A DNA stretch of 64,000 nucleotides from a virus: positions 35,006 through 99,005 of the IMG/VR virus record IMGVR_UViG_3300007540_000013; one strand, 5' to 3'. The notes under the pieces were generated by a model, which saw only the letters and a program-made list of their open reading frames with translations, made no database searches and was not told the DNA's origin. Positions 45,374 through 64,000 of the stretch are shown one piece after another (positions within the stretch are counted from its first letter, which is position 1; each line of letters opens with the position of its first letter). The position numbers were made by a program, and so were the translations under genes.

Positions 45374-45775
45374 ATGGCTGCTGGAAGGTACGATTTCACT
45401 ATAGAACAAGGAGCTACAACGAACTTTGAAGTTCAATATCAAGATAGCAACGAAAATCCGATAGATCTAACCGATTATCAAGGTAGAATGCAAATTCGCC
45501 CTTTAGTTGGGTCTTCTACTATACATTTAACTCTGTCTAGTAGTCTAGGAATATGCGGAACAGGAATCAACATGAGTGGATCCAATGGGACAACACCACC
45601 TACTTCCGGTTCAGTAGGCATTTATATCTCTGCAGCAACTTCTTCAATGTTAGATTGGGACGGTAATGCATACTATGACTTAGAAGTATACTCTGGGAGT
45701 AATGATTGTGAATACGTAGTTAGGTTACTCCAAGGCAAAGTGAGATTGAGTAAAGAAATAACCTTAGCAAGATAA
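45374..45775 (+). CDS. Small beta-rich virion protein
   Basis: Encodes 133 residues. The start YDFTIEQGATTNFEVQYQDS, then PIDLTDYQGRMQIR, forms a beta sandwich pattern seen in small phage structural proteins located next to fibre genes. The rest has Gly/Ser/Thr loops with strands SVGIYISAATSS and YYDLEVYSGS. It joins the fibre gene by TAATG overlap. It is probably an adaptor or short fibre part; exact family unknown. Confidence 0.65.
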   Translation: MAAGRYDFTIEQGATTNFEVQYQDSNENPIDLTDYQGRMQIRPLVGSSTIHLTLSSSLGICGTGINMSGSNGTTPPTSGSVGIYISAATSSMLDWDGNAYYDLEVYSGSNDCEYVVRLLQGKVRLSKEITLAR

Positions 45776-48396
45776 TGAAGAGAGTAGTAATACAACCTAA
45801 CACAACGACAGTTAAGGTATACAGCGTAGGATTACAAGGACCTCCAGGTGCAACAGGCGCCACAGGTCCTTCAGGTTCTGGCGGATCCAGTGATTTAGTA
45901 AATTTAAACACATTTACCGGATCTGCTGATACTAGATTAATTAATTTAGAAGCAGTTACCAGTTCTTATTTAACTGAAGTACCTAGCGGAACTGTAAGTA
46001 GTTGTGCTCAGATTGATTATAACTCTATACTGAATACACCAAGTGGGATCGTATCACAGTCAAGTGGTACTGTGGACCTGCCAGGTACAAAAATACAATA
46101 TTCTAATGTTTATTCAAACATCGAAGATCTTCCAGCAGCAAGTAGTTACCACGGAATGTTTGCCCACGTTCACGGAACTGGTAAAGCATACTACGCACAT
46201 GGTGGTAATTGGATTGAATTAGCAAACGCAAGTAGCAATATATCATCATCTGCTCAAATTGAAGCAGTAATTACTGATACATATATTTCTGCATCCGCCG
46301 CCGCAAGCGGCTTTAGCTCTGTAGGCGGTGGCTCTACTGATATATCTGCTTTAAACACATTTACCGGATCTGCTAGTAGCAGGTTAGATGACTTAGAGGC
46401 AGCAACCGGTTCTTACTTAACTGAAGTACCTAGCGGAACTGTAAGTAGTTCTGCTCAGATTGAAGTAGTAATTACTGATACCTATATTTCTGCATCCGCA
46501 GCAGCAAGTGGGTTTGGATCAGGAGGCGGTGGCTCTACCGACATTTCCGACTTAAATACTTTTACTGGATCTGCTAGTAGCAGGTTAGATGACTTAGAAG
46601 CAGCTACCAGTTCTTTCTTAACAAGTTCAGATACAGGCTCTCTATTAGTTACTGCGTCTGTAGTAAGTAACGTTATTACTTTAGAAAAAGCAGATGGAAC
46701 TTCTTTCGACCTTACAGTAGAGACTGGTTCCGGAGGAGGTGATGCGAGCAATTCAAACCGCAGCGGAGCTTTGTTTGATAATATTCCTGTAAATGAGTTA
46801 ATAAACGATACATGGACATTTAATACTACTAATAGAAAAATTTTACCAAACACATCAGGTAAATTCACTACAGCAACAAATCAAATTACTATTGCTGCCT
46901 CTTCTTCTGCAAATAATTTCTATTATACTGAATTATCAGCTTCAAAAGCAGGAGATGGGCTTGTTATCTCGGATAATGTTGATAAGATGAGATATACTAT
47001 TAATTCTTTTTCAATACTTAGTAATACTTTTGAAAATTTCACTACTACTAGTTTAGCCCCATATTACCCACCCAGCCAATTGCAAAGCGGTGTTTTCCCC
47101 AGTATAGTAGATTTATCAGATATTGAAAAAGTACTAGTGATTACAGGCTCAAGCCCGTCAACTGCTTATACAGTAGTGCATTATACTTCATCTAATCCCG
47201 TAGACCCTGCTGAAGTTGTAAATTCTAATTATGGTTTGGGTATATTTGGGTTTACTACTCACGTATCTGGAGGATATTTCGCTGCTGGTTCAAGTGGTGG
47301 AGGTAAAATGAAGCTAAGAAATAGTCTTGGAACTTCTGTTGATGATTTTTATTCTAGTGCCACATTTGTACAACCGATGGCCGTAGGATTCTCGGGTTCT
47401 GGTGATTACTTATTATTCTCTAGTAAATTTAATAGTTCTCCTAACGCAAATTCCTTTATTACTATAATGGATACAGCATCTGACCCATCTCAGTTCGGTA
47501 ATGCTTACGTATCTGAATGGAACGGTTATAGTGGGATGACTTATGGTCCTAATAATTATGCTATGAGAAATAGTTTAGATGCTATTTGGGATCAATCAAC
47601 AAAATGTTTCTACCACCTACTTTGGTCAGGTGACCGAACTCATGCAAGTATGTCCATAGCTGAGGTTACATCTTCATTTTCTAACCCTAATGGTGATGCA
47701 CCCTTTAAAACTTCCACTGTACGATTCTCAGACCCAGGCCATGGAGAAAATGGTGACCCATGGCAAGGAAAAACTATGGCTGGTTCTTTAAATAAGAAAC
47801 TCTGGGTATATAACAGAGGAGACGAAGGAAGAAGTTATACTTCTTCTATTATAGAATTTGACTATAGTAGTGGTATGTCTACTGGAGTGTATTCTGAGGT
47901 AATTAGTTTATCACAAACTAGTGCTGGAGAGTCAACCTGGGGGTATCCTAATGGTGCTGTTGTTTCAAATTATGTATGGGCAGTTGGTGGGTTAATGTAT
48001 TCTCCTACTAATAATGTGTTAATTGTAGGGGCTTATAATAAAACTGCAGATGCATCTGTAACTTATGTATATGATGCAAGTAGTTACATTCTACTTCAAA
48101 CTATAAATGATGTAATGTTAACTGGTAACAGTACTATGACTGAAACCGGTACTATTATAACTTATGATATAGATGGATTTGTAAAAGTACTTACTCCATC
48201 ATCAGGGGATAGTGAAAAATTTGTATATAATGTTTCATATTATAATAATGACCCTTCTATAGAAATTGACGCTACTAGTGGAGATGTAATATATACTAAG
48301 CTACAACTAAAAGACCCAGTAGCGACATCACCAAATGGTAATAAATGGAGATTAACAATAGATAATAACGGAGTAGTAACAGGCTCAGCAATATAA
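45775..48396 (+). CDS. Tail fibre / receptor-binding protein (chimeric)
   Basis: Encodes 873 residues. Order: an N-terminal beta segment, a short collagen-like GPPGATGATGPSG (about 22-34), three related modules containing NTFTGSA...RL-(D/N)LEA (about 45-300; the second and third repeat at 201-base spacing), a linker ending VETGSGGG, and a long C-terminal domain (about 330-873) without repeats. The last part uses T-ending codons more freely than the neighbours and has Trp/Tyr-rich strands such as HHLLWSGD-like loops (seen as YHLLWSGDRTHA), which suits a separately acquired receptor-binding or enzyme domain. It lies between PhoH and neck genes. Confidence 0.75.
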   Translation: MKRVVIQPNTTTVKVYSVGLQGPPGATGATGPSGSGGSSDLVNLNTFTGSADTRLINLEAVTSSYLTEVPSGTVSSCAQIDYNSILNTPSGIVSQSSGTVDLPGTKIQYSNVYSNIEDLPAASSYHGMFAHVHGTGKAYYAHGGNWIELANASSNISSSAQIEAVITDTYISASAAASGFSSVGGGSTDISALNTFTGSASSRLDDLEAATGSYLTEVPSGTVSSSAQIEVVITDTYISASAAASGFGSGGGGSTDISDLNTFTGSASSRLDDLEAATSSFLTSSDTGSLLVTASVVSNVITLEKADGTSFDLTVETGSGGGDASNSNRSGALFDNIPVNELINDTWTFNTTNRKILPNTSGKFTTATNQITIAASSSANNFYYTELSASKAGDGLVISDNVDKMRYTINSFSILSNTFENFTTTSLAPYYPPSQLQSGVFPSIVDLSDIEKVLVITGSSPSTAYTVVHYTSSNPVDPAEVVNSNYGLGIFGFTTHVSGGYFAAGSSGGGKMKLRNSLGTSVDDFYSSATFVQPMAVGFSGSGDYLLFSSKFNSSPNANSFITIMDTASDPSQFGNAYVSEWNGYSGMTYGPNNYAMRNSLDAIWDQSTKCFYHLLWSGDRTHASMSIAEVTSSFSNPNGDAPFKTSTVRFSDPGHGENGDPWQGKTMAGSLNKKLWVYNRGDEGRSYTSSIIEFDYSSGMSTGVYSEVISLSQTSAGESTWGYPNGAVVSNYVWAVGGLMYSPTNNVLIVGAYNKTADASVTYVYDASSYILLQTINDVMLTGNSTMTETGTIITYDIDGFVKVLTPSSGDSEKFVYNVSYYNNDPSIEIDATSGDVIYTKLQLKDPVATSPNGNKWRLTIDNNGVVTGSAI
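46270..46610 (+). repeat. 201-base direct repeat inside fibre gene
   Basis: The stretch beginning ATTACTGATA at 46,270 recurs at 46,471 with few changes, encoding ITDTYISASAAASGF followed by a Gly-rich linker and the FTGSASSRLDDLEAAT module. An earlier, more diverged copy of that module lies near 45,900. Confidence 0.75.
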
Positions 48397-51630: not shown

Positions 51631-54600
51631 ATGTCAAGACTAAAACTCAGATCAGTATTCCCCACCGGATCCTTAACAATATCAGGTTCTATCACCGCTA
51701 CTCAGTTTGTTGATAGTGCCGGGAATCCAGTTATTACATCAGCTCAAACTAGCTCTTTCTCCTCAGGCATCAGTACCTTAAGCGCTGAAACAGGATCATA
51801 TTTAGTAACTGGATCTGTTAGCGGAAACGTACTCACTTTTGAGAAGAAAGATGGTACTACTTTTGATCTGACTGTTGATACAGGTTCTGGAGACGTGAGC
51901 GGCGACAGTACTGATATTTCTAGTTTAAACATTTTCACCGGATCTGCAGAATCTAGGTTAGATTCAATAGAATCAGAAACAGGGTCTTATGTAGTTACAG
52001 GTTCAGTAGTCAATAACGTACTGACAATAGAAAAAAGCGACGGTACTTCATTTAACCTTACAGTAGATACTGGTTCCAATGAAGTATACACCGCAGGATT
52101 AGGTATAATTGTATCTGGAAACATAGTAACTTTAGATACAGGTTCAAACCATTTTATAACAGGTGTATCCCAGTCTGCCGCCGCCTCTGGATTTGGAAGT
52201 GCCAACGCAGCATTCGGAGATCCTCCTACAATAGATCAGGATGGCTTTCAAGTCAAGGAGTTTGAAGCTATAGGAACAACAGTAGGTACGTTAACCGTAA
52301 CAGATGTAACACCAGGAGACTCAGCAACATTCGCAACACAAAGCGGTTACTCAGCTGGATTCTTCGGTATAGATTCTGGATCTGGAGTAATAACTAATTT
52401 AGTAAAAACTACTGGAAGTATGAATACTTCTGCAGGTAGCGGTTCAAATTTAGCTCATCCATTTTTAGTAAAAGTAACTGATAGTCAAAATAATATAGTT
52501 AACGGTACTGTCTACATCTACGTTGAGCCAAACACAGCACCTGTATGGAGGCAAACTTCAACAGAAGGAAGCATTGTAACATCGTTTACTCAGTCATTAA
52601 ATGAAAACTCGGTAAGCGGTAGTAATAAAGCTAGAGTGTTTTTTACTGATGCAGAAAGTGATACTATTACTATAAGCACAGGGTCGTTATCTGGAACATT
52701 TACAGACACCTTCTCTCTGACAGTAGAAAGTACATACGTACAGTTAAACCAGATTACTGCATCTCTGGATTTCGAAACAACTCCTACATACGAGTTTGTA
52801 TTAACAGCTAGTGACGAACATTACGAAAATAGCGATGATACTGAATCAATTACTTATTTACCATTCCAAGTAAAGGTAACAGACAACACCGGACCATTAG
52901 TCAACGATCAAACATTAAGCACAATTAATGAAAATTCATCAGATGGAGCATCTGTAGGCAGTATAACTGCATCAGACCCGGAAGGAGATACTATTATATT
53001 CTCTAACTTTAGTTTAGTAAGAGCATATGTTAATGGAGTAGGTACTAATGTTACAGGATCTATGGGCGGTACCGGTTTAAATGATCCAACCGCTAATGCA
53101 TTTACTACTGATATAAACGGAAACGTTACTCGTAGAAACAGTATATACTTAAATGCAGATGTAGCTGATAGGTACGAGTATAGAGTAACAGTAACCGATG
53201 CATTTAATACTACCACGGATACTGGATTAATAACTATTCCTATTGCAGATGATGCTGCTTCTTCTATTACAGACAACTGGACAAATGTATATGTAATTGA
53301 ATCAGCTGTAGATGGTGATTCTTTGTATACTAACTCTGACGGGTTAACCGGTACAGTTGCTCAATGGTCATCAGCAGCATCACAGAGATGGGAAGTCTCA
53401 TCAGATTCAGATTTAATAGAGGTAACAGCGCTAACAGGATCCTCAACTCAACTAAGAGTTAAAAACGACATTAGCGGATCAATTTACTCTTACGACGGTA
53501 CAGACACAATTAATGTCGCTCTGACTGCCTCTGAACATGGATTTGAAACCACTAAGCAGTACGTAGACTTAGCAGTGAATGTCGCTATTAACAACGCTCC
53601 TCAAATGGGACCTACTGACGCGTCCGCTAATCAGAACACCAATGGTGCAAGAAGCGGAAGCCTTTTGACAACTATAACTATTTCAGATCTAGAAAGCGAC
53701 ACTATAGATCACAGCTCATTCACATTTATTAATCCAAGCGGACAGTTAAACGCAGTTAAGAGCGGGGATGATTATTTAGTACAGGCAGTAAACAGCCTAA
53801 GTGCAAGCTTATACCAATTCACTGCAAGTATTAAAGATGAACATAGATTCAGAACAAGAACTCTTGAACATTCTTTTAATATTACTCAAGCAGGAATTGG
53901 AACTTTAGGAGGAGATACTACATCCTATATTATAGAATCTGCTATAAGCGGTGCAGTATTAAGAGATGTAACTGGTTACAACAGCGGTAATCCATCTCAA
54001 CTAACTGTATCATATTCTCCTCAATATAACTCAGCAGCAGTACAGTCATTTACTTCGTCAAATGCAGCAATTGCTGTAGACGATAGTGGTAATTTAACAC
54101 TTAATATAAACCTCAGCGGCTCATTGACAGGTTCAGGAGATACTATATTAAGCGATATAACATTCCAAGACCAATACGGTAACCTAGGAAGCGGATCTCT
54201 AACAGTTAATGTATTTGCAAATCAAGCACCAACCGCCTCATTTACAGATCAAACAGCAAACTTTGAAACAAATCTAGCAATTGCCGGCGCCGCTATGGTA
54301 AGTATGAGTATAGCTGATACAGAATCAGATACACCATTCTCTGCATCCTTAAGTGGATCTGGCATCGCTGATTTAGAGATTGTGTTTGCTAATGCTAACT
54401 CTAGCTCCGCAGCAATTAAGGCTACAGATTCATTAGCTGCAGGTACATATAATTATCACGTAACAGTATTTGATAATTTTGGAAAATCTAGAGTATATAG
54501 TGATAGATCTTTTACTGTTACCCAATCCCCAGATTACGGAAAAGTGTACGTGTATAATGTAGGCTTTAACAACTCTACATACAACACAGCTGTAGGTATT

Positions 54601-55113
54601 CAGAGTGAAGACAGCTCAACACCACCGGTAGCAACACCTTATAGTAATCTTGGATTCGTAGACGCAATTATTAACGATAATAGACTCGGTAGTAGCTCGT
54701 TTGATTACGCTTACGGCTCAACAATAACTGCTACCTTACTAGCATCAGGCAGCGATACCAACGTACACGATGCATTAAGAGGAATGGGCAGTAGCGGTAC
54801 TATTGCACGTAATAGTTCTATTCACACTGTAGTACTGATGCCTAGTGGATCTGATTTAGGAGGATTACCAACATCAGTCACAGATAGTTACGGTGGTAGT
54901 ACAGTAGGAGAATATGTATTAGAGGTAGGTACCGACGGTACTACAATTGATGGTACGAATACGATCGAAGCATCTGAGATAAATCAGTTTGATTTGGCTA
55001 CCGCCCATCTAGGTTACACAACATGGTTTATGGTAGGTGCAAGAAATCAAATAGCTTCGTCTACCAACTTTAACCTAGGCCTGAATCCATCAAGTGGATC
55101 AGGAGGAGCATAA
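51631..55113 (+). CDS. Long tail fibre with cadherin-like repeats
   Basis: Encodes 1,160 residues. The first 190 contain the same fibre module as the gene at 45,775 (FTGSAESRLDSIESETGSY, then a strand pair with TIEKSDGTSFNLTVDTGS). Then several cadherin- or Ig-like repeats follow, marked by LNENS or INENS, D-x-E-x-D-T (for example TDAESDTI, SDPEGDTI, SDLESDTI) and closing strands such as FQVKVTDN. Acidic repeats of this kind bind calcium and form extended rods. The last 180 residues form a distinct tip domain. It is probably a long receptor-binding fibre. Confidence 0.78.
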   Translation: MSRLKLRSVFPTGSLTISGSITATQFVDSAGNPVITSAQTSSFSSGISTLSAETGSYLVTGSVSGNVLTFEKKDGTTFDLTVDTGSGDVSGDSTDISSLNIFTGSAESRLDSIESETGSYVVTGSVVNNVLTIEKSDGTSFNLTVDTGSNEVYTAGLGIIVSGNIVTLDTGSNHFITGVSQSAAASGFGSANAAFGDPPTIDQDGFQVKEFEAIGTTVGTLTVTDVTPGDSATFATQSGYSAGFFGIDSGSGVITNLVKTTGSMNTSAGSGSNLAHPFLVKVTDSQNNIVNGTVYIYVEPNTAPVWRQTSTEGSIVTSFTQSLNENSVSGSNKARVFFTDAESDTITISTGSLSGTFTDTFSLTVESTYVQLNQITASLDFETTPTYEFVLTASDEHYENSDDTESITYLPFQVKVTDNTGPLVNDQTLSTINENSSDGASVGSITASDPEGDTIIFSNFSLVRAYVNGVGTNVTGSMGGTGLNDPTANAFTTDINGNVTRRNSIYLNADVADRYEYRVTVTDAFNTTTDTGLITIPIADDAASSITDNWTNVYVIESAVDGDSLYTNSDGLTGTVAQWSSAASQRWEVSSDSDLIEVTALTGSSTQLRVKNDISGSIYSYDGTDTINVALTASEHGFETTKQYVDLAVNVAINNAPQMGPTDASANQNTNGARSGSLLTTITISDLESDTIDHSSFTFINPSGQLNAVKSGDDYLVQAVNSLSASLYQFTASIKDEHRFRTRTLEHSFNITQAGIGTLGGDTTSYIIESAISGAVLRDVTGYNSGNPSQLTVSYSPQYNSAAVQSFTSSNAAIAVDDSGNLTLNINLSGSLTGSGDTILSDITFQDQYGNLGSGSLTVNVFANQAPTASFTDQTANFETNLAIAGAAMVSMSIADTESDTPFSASLSGSGIADLEIVFANANSSSAAIKATDSLAAGTYNYHVTVFDNFGKSRVYSDRSFTVTQSPDYGKVYVYNVGFNNSTYNTAVGIQSEDSSTPPVATPYSNLGFVDAIINDNRLGSSSFDYAYGSTITATLLASGSDTNVHDALRGMGSSGTIARNSSIHTVVLMPSGSDLGGLPTSVTDSYGGSTVGEYVLEVGTDGTTIDGTNTIEASEINQFDLATAHLGYTTWFMVGARNQIASSTNFNLGLNPSSGSGGA

Positions 55114-58052: not shown

Positions 58053-60539
58053 ATGCCAAATTGGAAAAAGGTCATTACCTCAGGTAGTGATGCATCTTTA
58101 ACTTCTATTTACAGCGTCGGACCAATCACAGGTTCCGATTTAAAAATCAACGACTGGGGATCAGTATCAGCTTCTTTAGCATCATTAGACGCATCTACTT
58201 ATAACGACTCAGATGTAACTGACCATATTAGTTCACTAGGCGTTGTATCTGGATCATCTCAGATCACAATTTCAGACACCACTGGATATACTACATTCTC
58301 AAGTTCTATTGCATCAGATATTGCTGCAATTGATTTAAGTGTTACTTTGCAGGACGCTACTGATAACGGCGCTATTAATAGAAGAGCTCCAGAACCAACT
58401 GACTCTCTTGCTGATTGGGCAAGCACCGATGTTAATATTATAATCACAGGTAGTTTAGTAGCAGCAGCACCTGGTTACGAGACTCAGTATGCTCATTTAC
58501 AAGGAAATAGTCTAGATCTAGGAAGATCCGGCTCTACTGATACTTATATACAGTTAAATGGGAATAATGGAGGTTTAAGACTCGGCCCAGATGGGAGTAT
58601 AGTGGATATACATTCTGAGCAAATCTTAAATATACATACAGATAAGAACTTCCTTACACTGTATACCTCAGGAAGTAGTACATCGTATATTCGGAGCTTA
58701 AACGAATACGGCCCAGGCGGCAGCACTCAGTATGCTGGTCAAGTTTTAAAATTAGTTAATTCATACGCCGGCGCAGGATCAAATGCAAACTTTAATCTAA
58801 ATCATCAAGCAAAAGGTCAAATCGGACCAAACGGCGGCACTGCACTTAATTACGAATACTTAACAGTTAAAGGAGCGCAACACACTGTAAATGATGATGT
58901 TGAAGTAAACTTATTTGGGGACGTTATCAAAATGTCAACCACAACCGGTAGTTTTGGAGATAATCCGAGAGTTGAGATCAAACAATTAGGTACTGAAGTT
59001 TTCGGTAACCTCACAATCGACGGTACCGGTATTACAGGAATGGACGGAAGTATTAACGCTTCCGGAGCAATCACAGGTTCCGATTTAAAAATCAACAATT
59101 GGGGTTCAGTCTCCGCATCTCTTGCCTCTATCGAAGCTAGTGGCGCATCACAGACACTTCAAGAAGTAACAGATAACGGTAGTACCACTACAAATAGTAT
59201 TACTGTTGATTCTACAGTCCATGTAGGCCGCGGTGGGGGCTCAGTTACTTCAAACACAGCCGTTGGTAATAATGCACTTGGTTCAAATTCTACTGGTACT
59301 AATAACACTGCTTTTGGTAAAGACTCACTTTCATCTATTACAGATGCACACCAAAACGTTGCATTCGGTGATGGTGCCCTCCGTGATTTAACATTATCAG
59401 GAACTGCTGCAAATACCGCAGTAGGGTATCAAGCTCTTAGAGATAGTACTGGAACATCACAAGCAGTCGCAATAGGTAATCAATCAGCCGTGGGTGCTAC
59501 CGGTGATTATTTCACAGCAGTAGGTTACCAATCACTTGTAAGTGCTACAGGAGATGAAAATACTGCACTTGGTTATAGAGCCTTAAAAGACGCTACAAGT
59601 GCTGATCAAAATACTGCAGTAGGTACAAGAGCACTACAGGATCTTACTACGGGTGATAATAATACTGCAATAGGTAAAGATGCGGGTCTATTAAAAGGCA
59701 ATGGAGGATCAAACCTAACCTCAGCTAATGGTGTATTCTTAGGATACAATACTAAACCAGCAACCCAAACTAGCAGCAATGAAATTGTTATTGGGTATAA
59801 TGCCGTTGGTAATGGCAGTAATACAGTTACTATTGGTAACTCATCAATTACAGATAACTACTTCTCAGGTAATATCTCAGGTTCAGACACCCATATAGAT
59901 GAATGGGGCTCAGTCTCAGCTTCACTATCTAGTTTAAACAATACTATAGTCGAATCTGGATTTGTAGATGTAACCGGAACACCAACCAGCAACCAGTTAG
60001 CTATCTACAGCGATTCAAATACAATAAAGAGTGATACATCATTCAAAGTTATTGAAAATCAGCTAGGTAGAGGATCTACGTATAACCAATGGGACGGAGA
60101 TCAAGTAGATCTAATCTTCGCTCCTGGTATGAAAGCGCACGGTATTGAATTAGGAGATTTAAATCCTGCTTCAACACCATTCACTGCGTCTTTAACTATA
60201 CATACAAATCACGGAGCAACTTCAAACTCTGTAGAAAAGACTGCTCACGGACACCAATATGCTGCGGGTACTCATGTAGTATATACTGCTGCATGTTCTT
60301 CAGTGATGATACATTATAACTTATTAGAAGACAGCGCAGTAAGATCAGGTCAACTAGTGGTTGCAGTATACGGTAACGAAGCAACGCTCGTTGAACATAG
60401 TACATCAGATATAGGAACCGGAGACACTACCGGAGCAAGATTTATTGCTACAGCATCTAGTAATACTCTAACGTTATCTATAGTATCTGCAGCAGGAGGT
60501 TCCGTTAGTTTTAGTGCTGAAAGAATGTATAGTGTATAA
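58053..60539 (+). CDS. Tail fibre with trimeric-autotransporter-like head repeats
   Basis: Encodes 828 residues. N-terminus MPNWKKVITSGSDAS (attachment peptide shared with the gene at 56,414). A motif ITGSDLKIN-(D/N)-WGSVSASLAS occurs near the N-terminus and again near residue 345, with a diverged third copy (SGSDTHIDEWGSVSASLSS) near 610. Between them, about residues 400-600 are short repeats of TAVGYQAL / TALGYRAL / TAIGKDAG type, the left-handed beta roll of YadA-type adhesin heads. The C-terminal 140 residues form a different folded tip. It is probably a trimeric fibre with an adhesin-like stalk. Confidence 0.75.
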   Translation: MPNWKKVITSGSDASLTSIYSVGPITGSDLKINDWGSVSASLASLDASTYNDSDVTDHISSLGVVSGSSQITISDTTGYTTFSSSIASDIAAIDLSVTLQDATDNGAINRRAPEPTDSLADWASTDVNIIITGSLVAAAPGYETQYAHLQGNSLDLGRSGSTDTYIQLNGNNGGLRLGPDGSIVDIHSEQILNIHTDKNFLTLYTSGSSTSYIRSLNEYGPGGSTQYAGQVLKLVNSYAGAGSNANFNLNHQAKGQIGPNGGTALNYEYLTVKGAQHTVNDDVEVNLFGDVIKMSTTTGSFGDNPRVEIKQLGTEVFGNLTIDGTGITGMDGSINASGAITGSDLKINNWGSVSASLASIEASGASQTLQEVTDNGSTTTNSITVDSTVHVGRGGGSVTSNTAVGNNALGSNSTGTNNTAFGKDSLSSITDAHQNVAFGDGALRDLTLSGTAANTAVGYQALRDSTGTSQAVAIGNQSAVGATGDYFTAVGYQSLVSATGDENTALGYRALKDATSADQNTAVGTRALQDLTTGDNNTAIGKDAGLLKGNGGSNLTSANGVFLGYNTKPATQTSSNEIVIGYNAVGNGSNTVTIGNSSITDNYFSGNISGSDTHIDEWGSVSASLSSLNNTIVESGFVDVTGTPTSNQLAIYSDSNTIKSDTSFKVIENQLGRGSTYNQWDGDQVDLIFAPGMKAHGIELGDLNPASTPFTASLTIHTNHGATSNSVEKTAHGHQYAAGTHVVYTAACSSVMIHYNLLEDSAVRSGQLVVAVYGNEATLVEHSTSDIGTGDTTGARFIATASSNTLTLSIVSAAGGSVSFSAERMYSV

Positions 60540-60633: not shown

Positions 60634-63600
60634 ATGGCTAACGAATTTGTAATTAGGAATGGACTTAAAGTCCAAAGCGGTAGTGTAGACTTAGGGAATG
60701 TATCCTTAAATTTAGGTACTACAGGATCTGCAGCACTACCAGCTGGTAATAAACCAGTCGTATTAACATACGATACTGAAACTAATACAGTAACGTATCA
60801 GTTAGCTGCATCTGGATCTTTAGGGGAGTACGGTAATATAGGTATTCAAGGACCCGGAGGTATACAAGGTATAGCCGGTAACCAGGGTGTACAAGGTACC
60901 CAAGGTATAACATCTACTACACAAGGTACTCAAGGTATTAAAGGTACTCAAGCACCAAAAGGTACTCAAGGTACTGCTGGTGTTCAAGGTCTTGTAGGTA
61001 ACCAAGGAACTACAAATACAACTCAAGGTACTCAAGGAAACAAAGGTGTTCAAGGGCCGAAAGGTGAAAAAGGTATCGCCGGTGTTCAAGGTACCGTAGG
61101 TAACCAAGGAACTACTTCTGAAACACAAGGTACTCAAGGTACTAAAGGTGTTCAAGCACCAAAAGGTACTCAAGGTATCGCCGGTGTTCAAGGTCTTGTA
61201 GGTAATCAAGGTACAACATCAACCACTCAAGGTACTCAAGGTGATACTGGTACTCAAGCACCAAAAGGTAAAATCGGACCTGCTGGTGTTCAAGGTACCA
61301 TAGGTAACCAAGGAACTACTTCTGAAACACAAGGTACCCAAGGTAATAAAGGTGTCCAAGGTCCGAAAGGTAAAATCGGAACTGACGGTGTTCAAGGTCT
61401 TGTAGGTAATCAAGGTACTGCTAATACTACTCAAGGAACCCAAGGCGATACTGGTACTCAAGCACCAAAAGGTACTCAAGGTATCGCCGGTTCCCAAGGT
61501 ACAATAGGTAACCAAGGTACTACTTCTGAAACACAAGGTACCCAAGGTGATACTGGTACTCAAGCACCAAAAGGTACTCAAGGTATCGCCGGTGTTCAAG
61601 GTATTTTAGGTAACCAAGGAACTGCTAATACTACCCAAGGTACCCAAGGTAATAAAGGTGTCCAAGGACCGAAAGGTACTATCGGTATTTCCGGTGTTCA
61701 AGGTAACATAGGTAACCAAGGTACTGCTGATACTACTCAAGGAACCCAAGGTACTAAAGGTACTCAAGGACCGAAAGGTGAAGTAGGACCTGCCGGTGTT
61801 CAAGGTATAGTAGGTAACCAAGGTACTACTTCTGAAACACAAGGTACCCAAGGCGATACTGGTACTCAAGCACCAAAAGGTACTCAAGGTACTGCTGGTG
61901 TTCAAGGTATCATAGGTAACCAAGGAACTGCTAATACAACTCAAGGTACACAAGGTAATAAAGGTGTCCAAGGACCGAAAGGTGAAGTAGGAACTGACGG
62001 TGTTCAAGGTCTTGTAGGTAACCAAGGTACTGCTAATACAACTCAAGGTACTCAAGGTACTAAAGGTGTTCAAGCACCAAAAGGTACTCAAGGTATCGCC
62101 GGTGTTCAAGGTACCATAGGTAACCAAGGAACAACATCCACCACTCAAGGTACTCAAGGTGATACTGGTACTCAAGCACCAAAAGGTACTCAAGGTATAG
62201 ATGGACCGCAAGGTATAGTAGGTTCACAAGGTACTACATCTACTACACAAGGTACTCAAGGTTTACAAGGAACACAAGCACCAAAAGGTACTCAAGGTAC
62301 AGATGGACCGCAAGGTATATTAGGATCTCAAGGTACAACAAGTACTACTCAAGGTACTCAAGGTTTACAAGGTACTCAAGCACCGAAAGGTGAAAAAGGT
62401 ATTGCCGGGCCTCAAGGTATAACCGGTAATCAAGGTACTACATCTACTACTCAAGGAACACAAGGAACACAAGGAACACAAGCACCAAAAGGTACTCAAG
62501 GTACAGATGGACCGCAAGGTATAGTAGGTAATCAAGGTACAACATCCACTACTCAAGGAACACAAGGAACACAAGGAACACAAGCACCAAAAGGTGAAAA
62601 AGGTATTGCCGGGCCTCAAGGTATAGTAGGTTCACAAGGTACAACAAGTACTACACAAGGTACTCAAGGTTTACAAGGTACTCAAGCACCAAAAGGTACT
62701 CAAGGTATTGACGGTCCACAGGGTATATTAGGATCTCAAGGTACTACATCTACTACTCAAGGAACACAAGGAACACAAGGAACACAAGCACCGAAAGGTA
62801 CTCAAGGTACCGCTGGTAGTCAAGGTATATTAGGATCTCAAGGTACTGCATCTTCAACTCAAGGTACACAAGGAACTAAAGGAACACAAGCACCGAAAGG
62901 TACTCAAGGTACTGCTGGTGTTCAAGGTATCATAGGTAATCAAGGAACTGCTAATACTACACAAGGAACACAAGGAACTAAAGGTAGTCAAGGTACGAAA
63001 GGGGAAGTAGGTATTAGCGGTTCCCAAGGTACAATAGGTAACCAAGGTACCAATATAACAACACAAGGGACACAAGGAACTAAAGGATCGCAAGGTACTA
63101 AAGGGACTATCGGTATTTCCGGTTCCCAAGGTACAATAGGTAACCAAGGAACAGCTAATACTACACAAGGAAATCAAGGTACTAAAGGTACTCAAGGTCC
63201 GAAAGGTGAAAAAGGTCTCGCCGGTGTTCAAGGTATCGTAGGTAACCAAGGTACAACATCCACCACTCAAGGTACTCAAGGTACTAAAGGTGTTCAAGCA
63301 CCAAAAGGTATTCAAGGTATCGCCGGTGTTCAAGGTATCGTAGGTAACCAAGGCACTGCTAATACAACTCAAGGTACTCAAGGAAACAAAGGTAGCCAAG
63401 GTACTAAAGGGACTATCGGTATTAGCGGTTCCCAAGGTACAATAGGTAACCAAGGTACAAATATAACAACACAAGGGACACAAGGAACTAAAGGTAGCCA
63501 AGGTACTAAAGGGACTATCGGTATTTCCGGTTCCCAAGGTACAATAGGTAACCAAGGTACCAATATAACAACTCAAGGGACACAAGGAAACAAAGGTGTC

Positions 63601-64000
63601 CAAGGTACTAAAGGGACTATCGGTATTTCCGGTTCCCAAGGTACAATAGGTAACCAAGGTACTGCTAATACAACTCAAGGTACTCAAGGTACTAAAGGTG
63701 CTCAAGGTCCAAAAGGTAAAATCGGAACTGACGGTGTTCAAGGTATAGTAGGTAACCAAGGAACAGCTAATACTACCCAAGGTACACAAGGAAACAAAGG
63801 TGTCCAAGGTCCGAAAGGTGAAAAAGGTATCGCCGGTGTTCAAGGTACAGTAGGTACCCAAGGAACAGCTAATACTACACAAGGAACACAAGGTACTAAA
63901 GGTACTCAAGGACCGAAAGGTAAAAAAGGTATCGCCGGTGTTCAAGGTACAGTAGGTACCCAAGGAACTGCTAATACTACCCAAGGTACACAAGGAAACA
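60634..64000 (+). CDS. Collagen-like tail fibre protein, 3' end outside window
   Basis: An open frame of more than 1,120 residues running off the window. It starts MANEFVIRNGLKVQSGSVDL, a fibre N-terminus. From about residue 70 it is Gly-x-y repeats of an unusual kind (GTQ, GVQ, GNQ, GPK, GEK), in units of 34 residues, each with one break (such as TTNTTQ or TANTTQ) between triplets. Phage collagen-like proteins form trimeric rods that mediate fibre length or host contact. Proline is scarce, so stability must come from charge pairs and Gln/Thr. The very long minus-strand open frames across it are a by-product of the repeat. Confidence 0.85.
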   Translation, partial: MANEFVIRNGLKVQSGSVDLGNVSLNLGTTGSAALPAGNKPVVLTYDTETNTVTYQLAASGSLGEYGNIGIQGPGGIQGIAGNQGVQGTQGITSTTQGTQGIKGTQAPKGTQGTAGVQGLVGNQGTTNTTQGTQGNKGVQGPKGEKGIAGVQGTVGNQGTTSETQGTQGTKGVQAPKGTQGIAGVQGLVGNQGTTSTTQGTQGDTGTQAPKGKIGPAGVQGTIGNQGTTSETQGTQGNKGVQGPKGKIGTDGVQGLVGNQGTANTTQGTQGDTGTQAPKGTQGIAGSQGTIGNQGTTSETQGTQGDTGTQAPKGTQGIAGVQGILGNQGTANTTQGTQGNKGVQGPKGTIGISGVQGNIGNQGTADTTQGTQGTKGTQGPKGEVGPAGVQGIVGNQGTTSETQGTQGDTGTQAPKGTQGTAGVQGIIGNQGTANTTQGTQGNKGVQGPKGEVGTDGVQGLVGNQGTANTTQGTQGTKGVQAPKGTQGIAGVQGTIGNQGTTSTTQGTQGDTGTQAPKGTQGIDGPQGIVGSQGTTSTTQGTQGLQGTQAPKGTQGTDGPQGILGSQGTTSTTQGTQGLQGTQAPKGEKGIAGPQGITGNQGTTSTTQGTQGTQGTQAPKGTQGTDGPQGIVGNQGTTSTTQGTQGTQGTQAPKGEKGIAGPQGIVGSQGTTSTTQGTQGLQGTQAPKGTQGIDGPQGILGSQGTTSTTQGTQGTQGTQAPKGTQGTAGSQGILGSQGTASSTQGTQGTKGTQAPKGTQGTAGVQGIIGNQGTANTTQGTQGTKGSQGTKGEVGISGSQGTIGNQGTNITTQGTQGTKGSQGTKGTIGISGSQGTIGNQGTANTTQGNQGTKGTQGPKGEKGLAGVQGIVGNQGTTSTTQGTQGTKGVQAPKGIQGIAGVQGIVGNQGTANTTQGTQGNKGSQGTKGTIGISGSQGTIGNQGTNITTQGTQGTKGSQGTKGTIGISGSQGTIGNQGTNITTQGTQGNKGVQGTKGTIGISGSQGTIGNQGTANTTQGTQGTKGAQGPKGKIGTDGVQGIVGNQGTANTTQGTQGNKGVQGPKGEKGIAGVQGTVGTQGTANTTQGTQGTKGTQGPKGKKGIAGVQGTVGTQGTANTTQGTQGN
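60979..64000 (+). repeat. 102-base tandem repeat array encoding collagen-like units
   Basis: Units starting GGTGTTCAAGGT occur at 60,979, 61,081, 61,183, 61,285 and, after many copies, at 63,835 and 63,937. The distance 60,979-63,835 is exactly 28 x 102 bases, so no net length change has occurred. Units differ by many synonymous and some coding changes. The array continues past the window. Confidence 0.9.

What the first reader, a model, noticed from the sequence alone, without database searches (positions are those of the whole stretch)
60841..64000. Very long, exactly phased collagen-like repeat with one fixed break per unit
At least 29 units of exactly 102 bases (34 residues) run without net insertion or deletion (28 x 102 between 60,979 and 63,835). 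Each unit has 11 Gly-x-y triplets plus one extra residue in a Thr/Asn/Gln break. Proline, essential to animal collagen, is almost absent; Gln, Thr and Lys dominate. Synonymous differences between units show age, while the fixed length shows strong selection on rod geometry, possibly a bend or register shift every 34 residues.
Basis: seen in the sequence. Interest (0 to 1): 0.68.

Follow-up and report, generated by a model that had tools for sequence, protein, structure and literature searches.

The report
Phased collagen-like phage fibre, cut short
This is a gene for a very long collagen-like fibre of a T4-like phage, an ordinary kind of phage part. It is built here from at least 30 exactly equal 34-residue segments, each with the same kind of break, and at least one other phage fibre follows the same plan.

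Summary
ORF 60634-63999 carries 30 full units of exactly 102 bp (34 aa) plus 12 residues, with no length variant. The ORF is open because the contig (G000, 99,005 bases) ends inside the array, so copy number is a minimum. Two details need correcting. A unit has 10 Gly slots, nine invariant, and a 7-residue +1 interruption, GT[T/A][S/N]TTQ. The tenth slot is Ala in 16 of 30 units, so about half the units have a second break. Proline is 3.2%, low but present in nearly every unit.

Two other contigs (L108/L118 and L117) start inside what is almost certainly the same array. They show its 3' end: more 34-aa units, a short head and a Peptidase_S74 self-cleaving trimerisation chaperone. The gene is therefore a collagen-like tail or appendage fibre, a very common kind in environmental phages.

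Exact phasing is rare but not unique. Among 167 collagen-like ORFs from related or pattern-matched loci, L222 has 15 breaks, 13 spacings of exactly 44 aa, with the same interruption type, GxxNTTQ. A looser form, Gxx[S/N][S/T]xQ, recurs elsewhere.

Verdict: new variant of a known kind. The bend or hinge role is inferred.

The parts
60634..60813 (+). N-terminal non-collagen segment (MANEFVIRNGLKVQSG..., about 60 aa), presumed virion-attachment end
   Evidence: similar short N-termini precede collagen rods in L031 and L173. The virion-attachment role is inferred.
60814..60903 (+). Leading Gly-x-y stretch before the first full unit
60904..63963 (+). 30 tandem 102-bp units (34 aa): G-T-[TA]-[SN]-T-T-Q interruption followed by nine triplet slots, one of them Gly or Ala
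   Evidence: all spacings 34; Pfam Collagen 1.6e-96
63964..63999 (+). First 12 residues of unit 31; the contig ends here, so the gene is truncated by assembly
   Evidence: window ends at base 99005 of 99005. The missing 3' end is seen in L108/L118:1-747 and L117.

Best explanation
The gene encodes the long shaft of a homotrimeric tail or side fibre of a T4-like phage. (1) The N-terminal ~60 residues anchor it to the virion (inferred). (2) The C-terminal S74 intramolecular chaperone, missing from the window but present on contigs carrying the same array, brings three chains together in register, starts triple-helix folding from the C-terminus, and then cuts itself off at a Ser...Lys dyad. The domain and dyad are shown; the activity is inferred from solved relatives. 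(3) The Gly-x-y units fold into a rod of at least ~300 nm, assuming 0.286 nm per residue. (4) Each unit carries a 7-residue interruption that adds one residue to the triplet register, so the Gly phase moves by one per unit and returns every three units. The simplest role is a regularly spaced, locally loosened joint giving a segmented, semi-flexible shaft. About half the units have a second weak point, Gly to Ala (inferred). (5) The array grew by duplication of whole units in register, followed by substitution under purifying selection.
For: Array geometry and selection. Collagen and tail fibre families. T4-like structural context: (major capsid 73% identical to Flavobacterium phage immuto). 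3' end: L108/L118 and L117 start in the array with the same 34-aa units (best unit 91% DNA identity) and end in Peptidase_S74 (4.5e-18). S74 dyad: Ser and Lys five apart, invariant in 32 of 32 homologues, the spacing of T5 pb1 Ser1264/Lys1269 (PMC4690869). The model matches the MyRF ICA domain (7dc3, E 1e-5) although mean pLDDT is only 68.6. Same genome likely: no overlap outside the array, tetranucleotide profile as close as the contig's own other parts, gene order paralleled in L125 and immuto. Interruptions can bend triple helices: PMC9898670.
Against: No structure or biochemistry exists for this protein. The link between the window contig and L108 rests on the array, composition and gene order, not on a spanning read. 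The window's N-terminus has no match in named phages at E 1e-5. That the break is a hinge rather than just a tolerated stutter is untested.
Confidence: 0.8

Rival explanations
1. The exact 34-residue phasing has no structural meaning. It is the footprint of recent in-register unit duplication, with the interruption carried along as a neutral, tolerated stutter.
For: Unit similarity falls with distance (0.785 at lag 1 to about 0.73 at lag 7 and beyond), as expected from local duplication or conversion. Ala/Gly and the next triplet are linked (13 of 16 Ala units carry TQ or IQ, 0 of 14 Gly units), consistent with block duplication.
Against: Third-position identity is only 63%, so the units are not very recent, yet 0 of 30 differ in length. 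Similarly diverged phage collagen arrays gain or lose triplets (L130 9 of 22, L235 5 of 16). The same interruption type is used at fixed phase in an unrelated fibre (L222).
Confidence: 0.35
2. The array length or regularity is an assembly artefact (collapse or expansion of a repeat).
For: All three contigs carrying the array (the window's, L118 and L117) break inside it.
Against: Units differ by about 25 of 102 bases on average and the longest exact internal repeat is 69 bases, so most units can be placed by short reads. Collapse would hide units, not create a uniform period. L118 shows the same 34-aa period independently.
Confidence: 0.07
3. The interruption serves as a binding, modification or cross-linking site displayed at regular intervals, rather than as a mechanical joint.
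For: The element is rich in Ser, Thr and Asn and recurs with a similar pattern in other phage rods (GADNSTQ, GPDNSTQ, GADSTVQ, GVENTTQ).
Against: No known modification motif was tested. Position 4 varies S/N/I/D within the array.
Confidence: 0.15

Closest known systems
Collagen-like side-tail proteins of E. coli O157:H7 prophages (EPclA/EPclB; PMC3368898)
   Same: Collagen-like trimeric phage fibre with a C-terminal trimerisation domain and no hydroxyproline
   Different: They use PfN/PfC domains and a coiled coil and are much shorter; here there is an S74 domain, at least 30 phased units and a Thr/Gln-rich composition.
Phage T5 L-shaped tail fibre pb1 (PMC4690869)
   Same: C-terminal S74/ICA chaperone with Ser...Lys five residues apart; the authors suggest a collagen fold for its thin proximal part
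   Different: The tip is a large beta bullet domain; no phased Gly-x-y array is described in the passages read.
Collagen-like S74 fibres of environmental T4-like phages (for example L125, L130, L138, L173, L182)
   Same: Short N-terminus, long Gly-x-y rod and S74-type end in related phages
   Different: Arrays are irregular or uninterrupted; none of those listed has 30 equal spacings.
L222 fibre (IMGVR_UViG_3300021256_002164)
   Same: 15 breaks of the GxxN[T/I][T/I]Q type, 13 spacings of exactly 44 aa then one of 43, and an S74-like C-terminus
   Different: Different phage, unit length and sequence; two +1 interruptions per unit (GVENTTQ and GLTSSKQ).

Membership tests
Collagen-like protein (Pfam PF01391) | Long run of Gly-x-y triplets above the curated cut-off | tested here: met
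   316.5 bits against a cut-off of 27.2; nine Gly slots invariant in 30/30 units
Collagen-like protein (Pfam PF01391) | Forms a triple helix | not testable with these tools
   Only monomer prediction is on hand; needs circular dichroism or cryo-EM
S74/ICA self-cleaving phage fibre | C-terminal Peptidase_S74 domain | tested here: met
   PF13884 4.5e-18 in L108, on the contig carrying the array's 3' end; absent from the window itself because the contig ends first
S74/ICA self-cleaving phage fibre | Catalytic Ser and Lys five residues apart | tested here: met
   S83 and K88 invariant in 32 of 32 sequences
S74/ICA self-cleaving phage fibre | Autocleavage and trimerisation | not testable with these tools
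   Needs expression
T4-like phage tail fibre | Encoded among T4-like virion genes | tested here: met
   Terminase, portal, major capsid and baseplate PHROGs; tail sheath downstream in L108
T4-like phage tail fibre | Physically part of the virion tail | not testable with these tools
   Needs virion proteomics or electron microscopy

The most novel reading that the evidence does not exclude
Some phages build collagen rods as strings of equal-length segments separated by a recurring 7-residue +1 interruption, G-x-x-[N/S]-[S/T]-x-Q. The spacing is set by selection, so the interruption is a functional joint that tunes rod flexibility or superhelical register, a design principle not described for phage fibres in the papers found here.
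Probability: 0.3. Interest if true: 0.6.

Novelty: new variant of a known kind. Interest (0 to 1): 0.42.

Why it matters
Collagen rods are a widely used building material of environmental phages. This array, with its 44-residue counterpart in L222, gives natural, highly repeated test cases for what a +1 interruption does to a proline-poor triple helix, a question studied mostly in animal collagens and short peptides. It also offers a hydroxyproline-free, segmented rod design.

Tried and rejected
Orthologues in named phages: tblastn with the N-terminus and with the array found none in the phage collection. For the array the low-complexity filter makes this uninformative.

The Ala-Pro-Lys part of the unit, searched as a pattern in viral contigs, gave nothing. 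The break pattern in cellular genomes gave nothing.

A 306-bp higher-order unit (reported by TRF): unit similarity at lag 3 (0.773) is no higher than at lags 1 and 2, so the period reflects 3 x 102, not a triple-unit duplication.

Immuto phages have no collagen gene in the virion block read (L105 absent from the list), so the fibre is an exchangeable module, not a core gene.

Long antisense ORFs over the array are by-products of its codon pattern, not genes.

Full report
What is there. The window is the last 64 kb of a 99,005-base linear virus record. ORF 60634-63999 (1122 aa) has no stop before the contig ends. After a ~60-residue N-terminal segment, Gly-x-y begins at about 60814, and from 60904 to 63963 there are 30 units of exactly 34 residues plus 12 residues of a 31st. 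All 30 spacings of the break element are 34. TRF agrees: 102 bp, 31.0 copies, score 2337.

Anatomy of a unit. Consensus: GT[T/A][S/N]TTQ GTQ GxK GxQ [A/G]PK Gxx Gxx GxQ Gxx GNQ. The first seven residues form an interruption with six residues between glycines instead of two, a net +1 to the triplet register. The remaining 27 residues are nine triplet slots. Nine of the ten Gly slots are Gly in 30/30 units; the tenth is Ala in 16 and Gly in 14. Gln at five positions and one Lys are invariant. Pro is 33 of 1020 residues, only in X. Because 34 mod 3 is 1, the Gly phase cycles 1,2,0 through the array, which probably explains why TRF also sees 306 bp; there is no excess similarity at lag 3.

Age and selection. 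Mean DNA identity between units is 75%, third positions 63%; pS 0.43, pN 0.18, dN/dS about 0.33. Silent changes accumulate at Gly codons while Gly stays fixed, so the coding sequence is under purifying selection. Similarity declines with distance, pointing to local duplication or conversion. Zero of 30 units differ in length, whereas L130 has 9 of 22 and L235 5 of 16 off-length units at 57% and 70% third-position identity. This suggests constraint on length but does not prove it, because the arrays compared are different proteins.

The missing end. A DNA pattern for the break found one viral contig, L108/L118, which begins inside a 34-aa array and ends it: two units, a short head, then Peptidase_S74 and a stop. 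L117 is 99.99% identical over 10.3 kb and also starts in the array. The first L118 unit is 91% identical to window unit 9. The two contigs share nothing outside the array, their tetranucleotide profiles are as close as different parts of the window's own contig, and the gene order (tail fibre region, then sheath) fits immuto and L125. I infer that they are two sides of one assembly gap in one phage species. This link is inferred, not read.

The C-terminal domain. Ser83 and Lys88 of the L118 segment, five apart, are invariant in 32 homologues, matching the catalytic pair of T5 pb1, Ser1264 and Lys1269 (PMC4690869). A monomer model (mean pLDDT 68.6, good only in the C-terminal half) matches the ICA domain of MyRF (E 1e-5) and, weakly, the endosialidase chaperone 3gw6. 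Sequence search also hits phage tail fibres with solved structures (8jov, 6f45).

Genome context. PHROGs give terminase, portal, major capsid and baseplate wedge of T4-like phages; the nearest named relatives are Flavobacterium phages immuto (capsid 73%). The gene just downstream in L108 (328 aa) is widespread, and in 31 of 79 relatives its upstream neighbour is a collagen-like ORF.

How unusual is the phasing? In 167 collagen-like ORFs from fetched loci (some fetched by the break pattern itself), most have few or no breaks. Exact phasing also occurs in L222: 15 breaks, 13 spacings of 44 then one 43, with interruptions GVENTTQ and GLTSSKQ. L216 has 23 breaks in a row at 22 and L225 has runs at 43 and 41, with shorter interruption types. 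In loci not chosen by the break pattern, the +1 class has S or N at position 4 in 21 of 25 distinct cases (background about 0.27, p about 4e-9, not corrected for relatedness). The window's interruption therefore belongs to a recurrent type, and its array is the longest exactly phased run seen here.

Mechanism. The best reading is a trimeric shaft nucleated by the S74 domain at the C-terminus, which then leaves. The rod would be at least 300 nm at 0.286 nm per residue (the rise is general knowledge). The interruptions most likely act as regular loosened joints: a natural interruption in mannan-binding lectin collagen lowers stability and bends the helix (PMC9898670). That step is inference.

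Verdict. Papers found on phage and bacterial collagens (PMC3368898, PMC8968730) mention occasional interruptions; the passages read describe no exactly phased ones, but the library is incomplete, and a census of collagen interruptions cited in PMC9898670 (Bella 2014) was not read.

Noticed in passing
58053-60539 (+): The 828-aa upstream ORF starts MPNWKKVITSGSDA, the same N-terminus that precedes collagen rods in L059, L071, L125, L130 and L182, but here it carries NTAVGNNALG-type repeats that look like a YadA-like beta-roll: exchangeable shafts on a shared anchor.
   Followed up: partly
45775-48396 (+), repeat at 46249-46622: 873-aa tail-fibre-like ORF with a 201-bp (67-aa) tandem repeat of 1.9 copies and a short GLQGPPGATGATGPSG collagen-like stretch.
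   Followed up: no
51631-55113 (+): 1160-aa ORF in the virion gene block with a Cadherin domain hit (PF00028, 4.6e-9).
   Followed up: no
62854-63999 (-): A 381-aa open antisense frame over the array, produced by its codon pattern; a trap for gene callers.
   Followed up: yes
L130:786-6381, L220: A collagen-like S74 fibre with about 25 GADNSTQ/GPDNSTQ interruptions spaced mostly 13 or 16 residues apart.
   Followed up: partly
L108:795-3009: A 328-aa gene followed by a 414-aa gene with weak TPR hits, directly downstream of the fibre; the 328-aa gene has at least 598 relatives in viral contigs and may act on the fibre or the host surface.
   Followed up: partly
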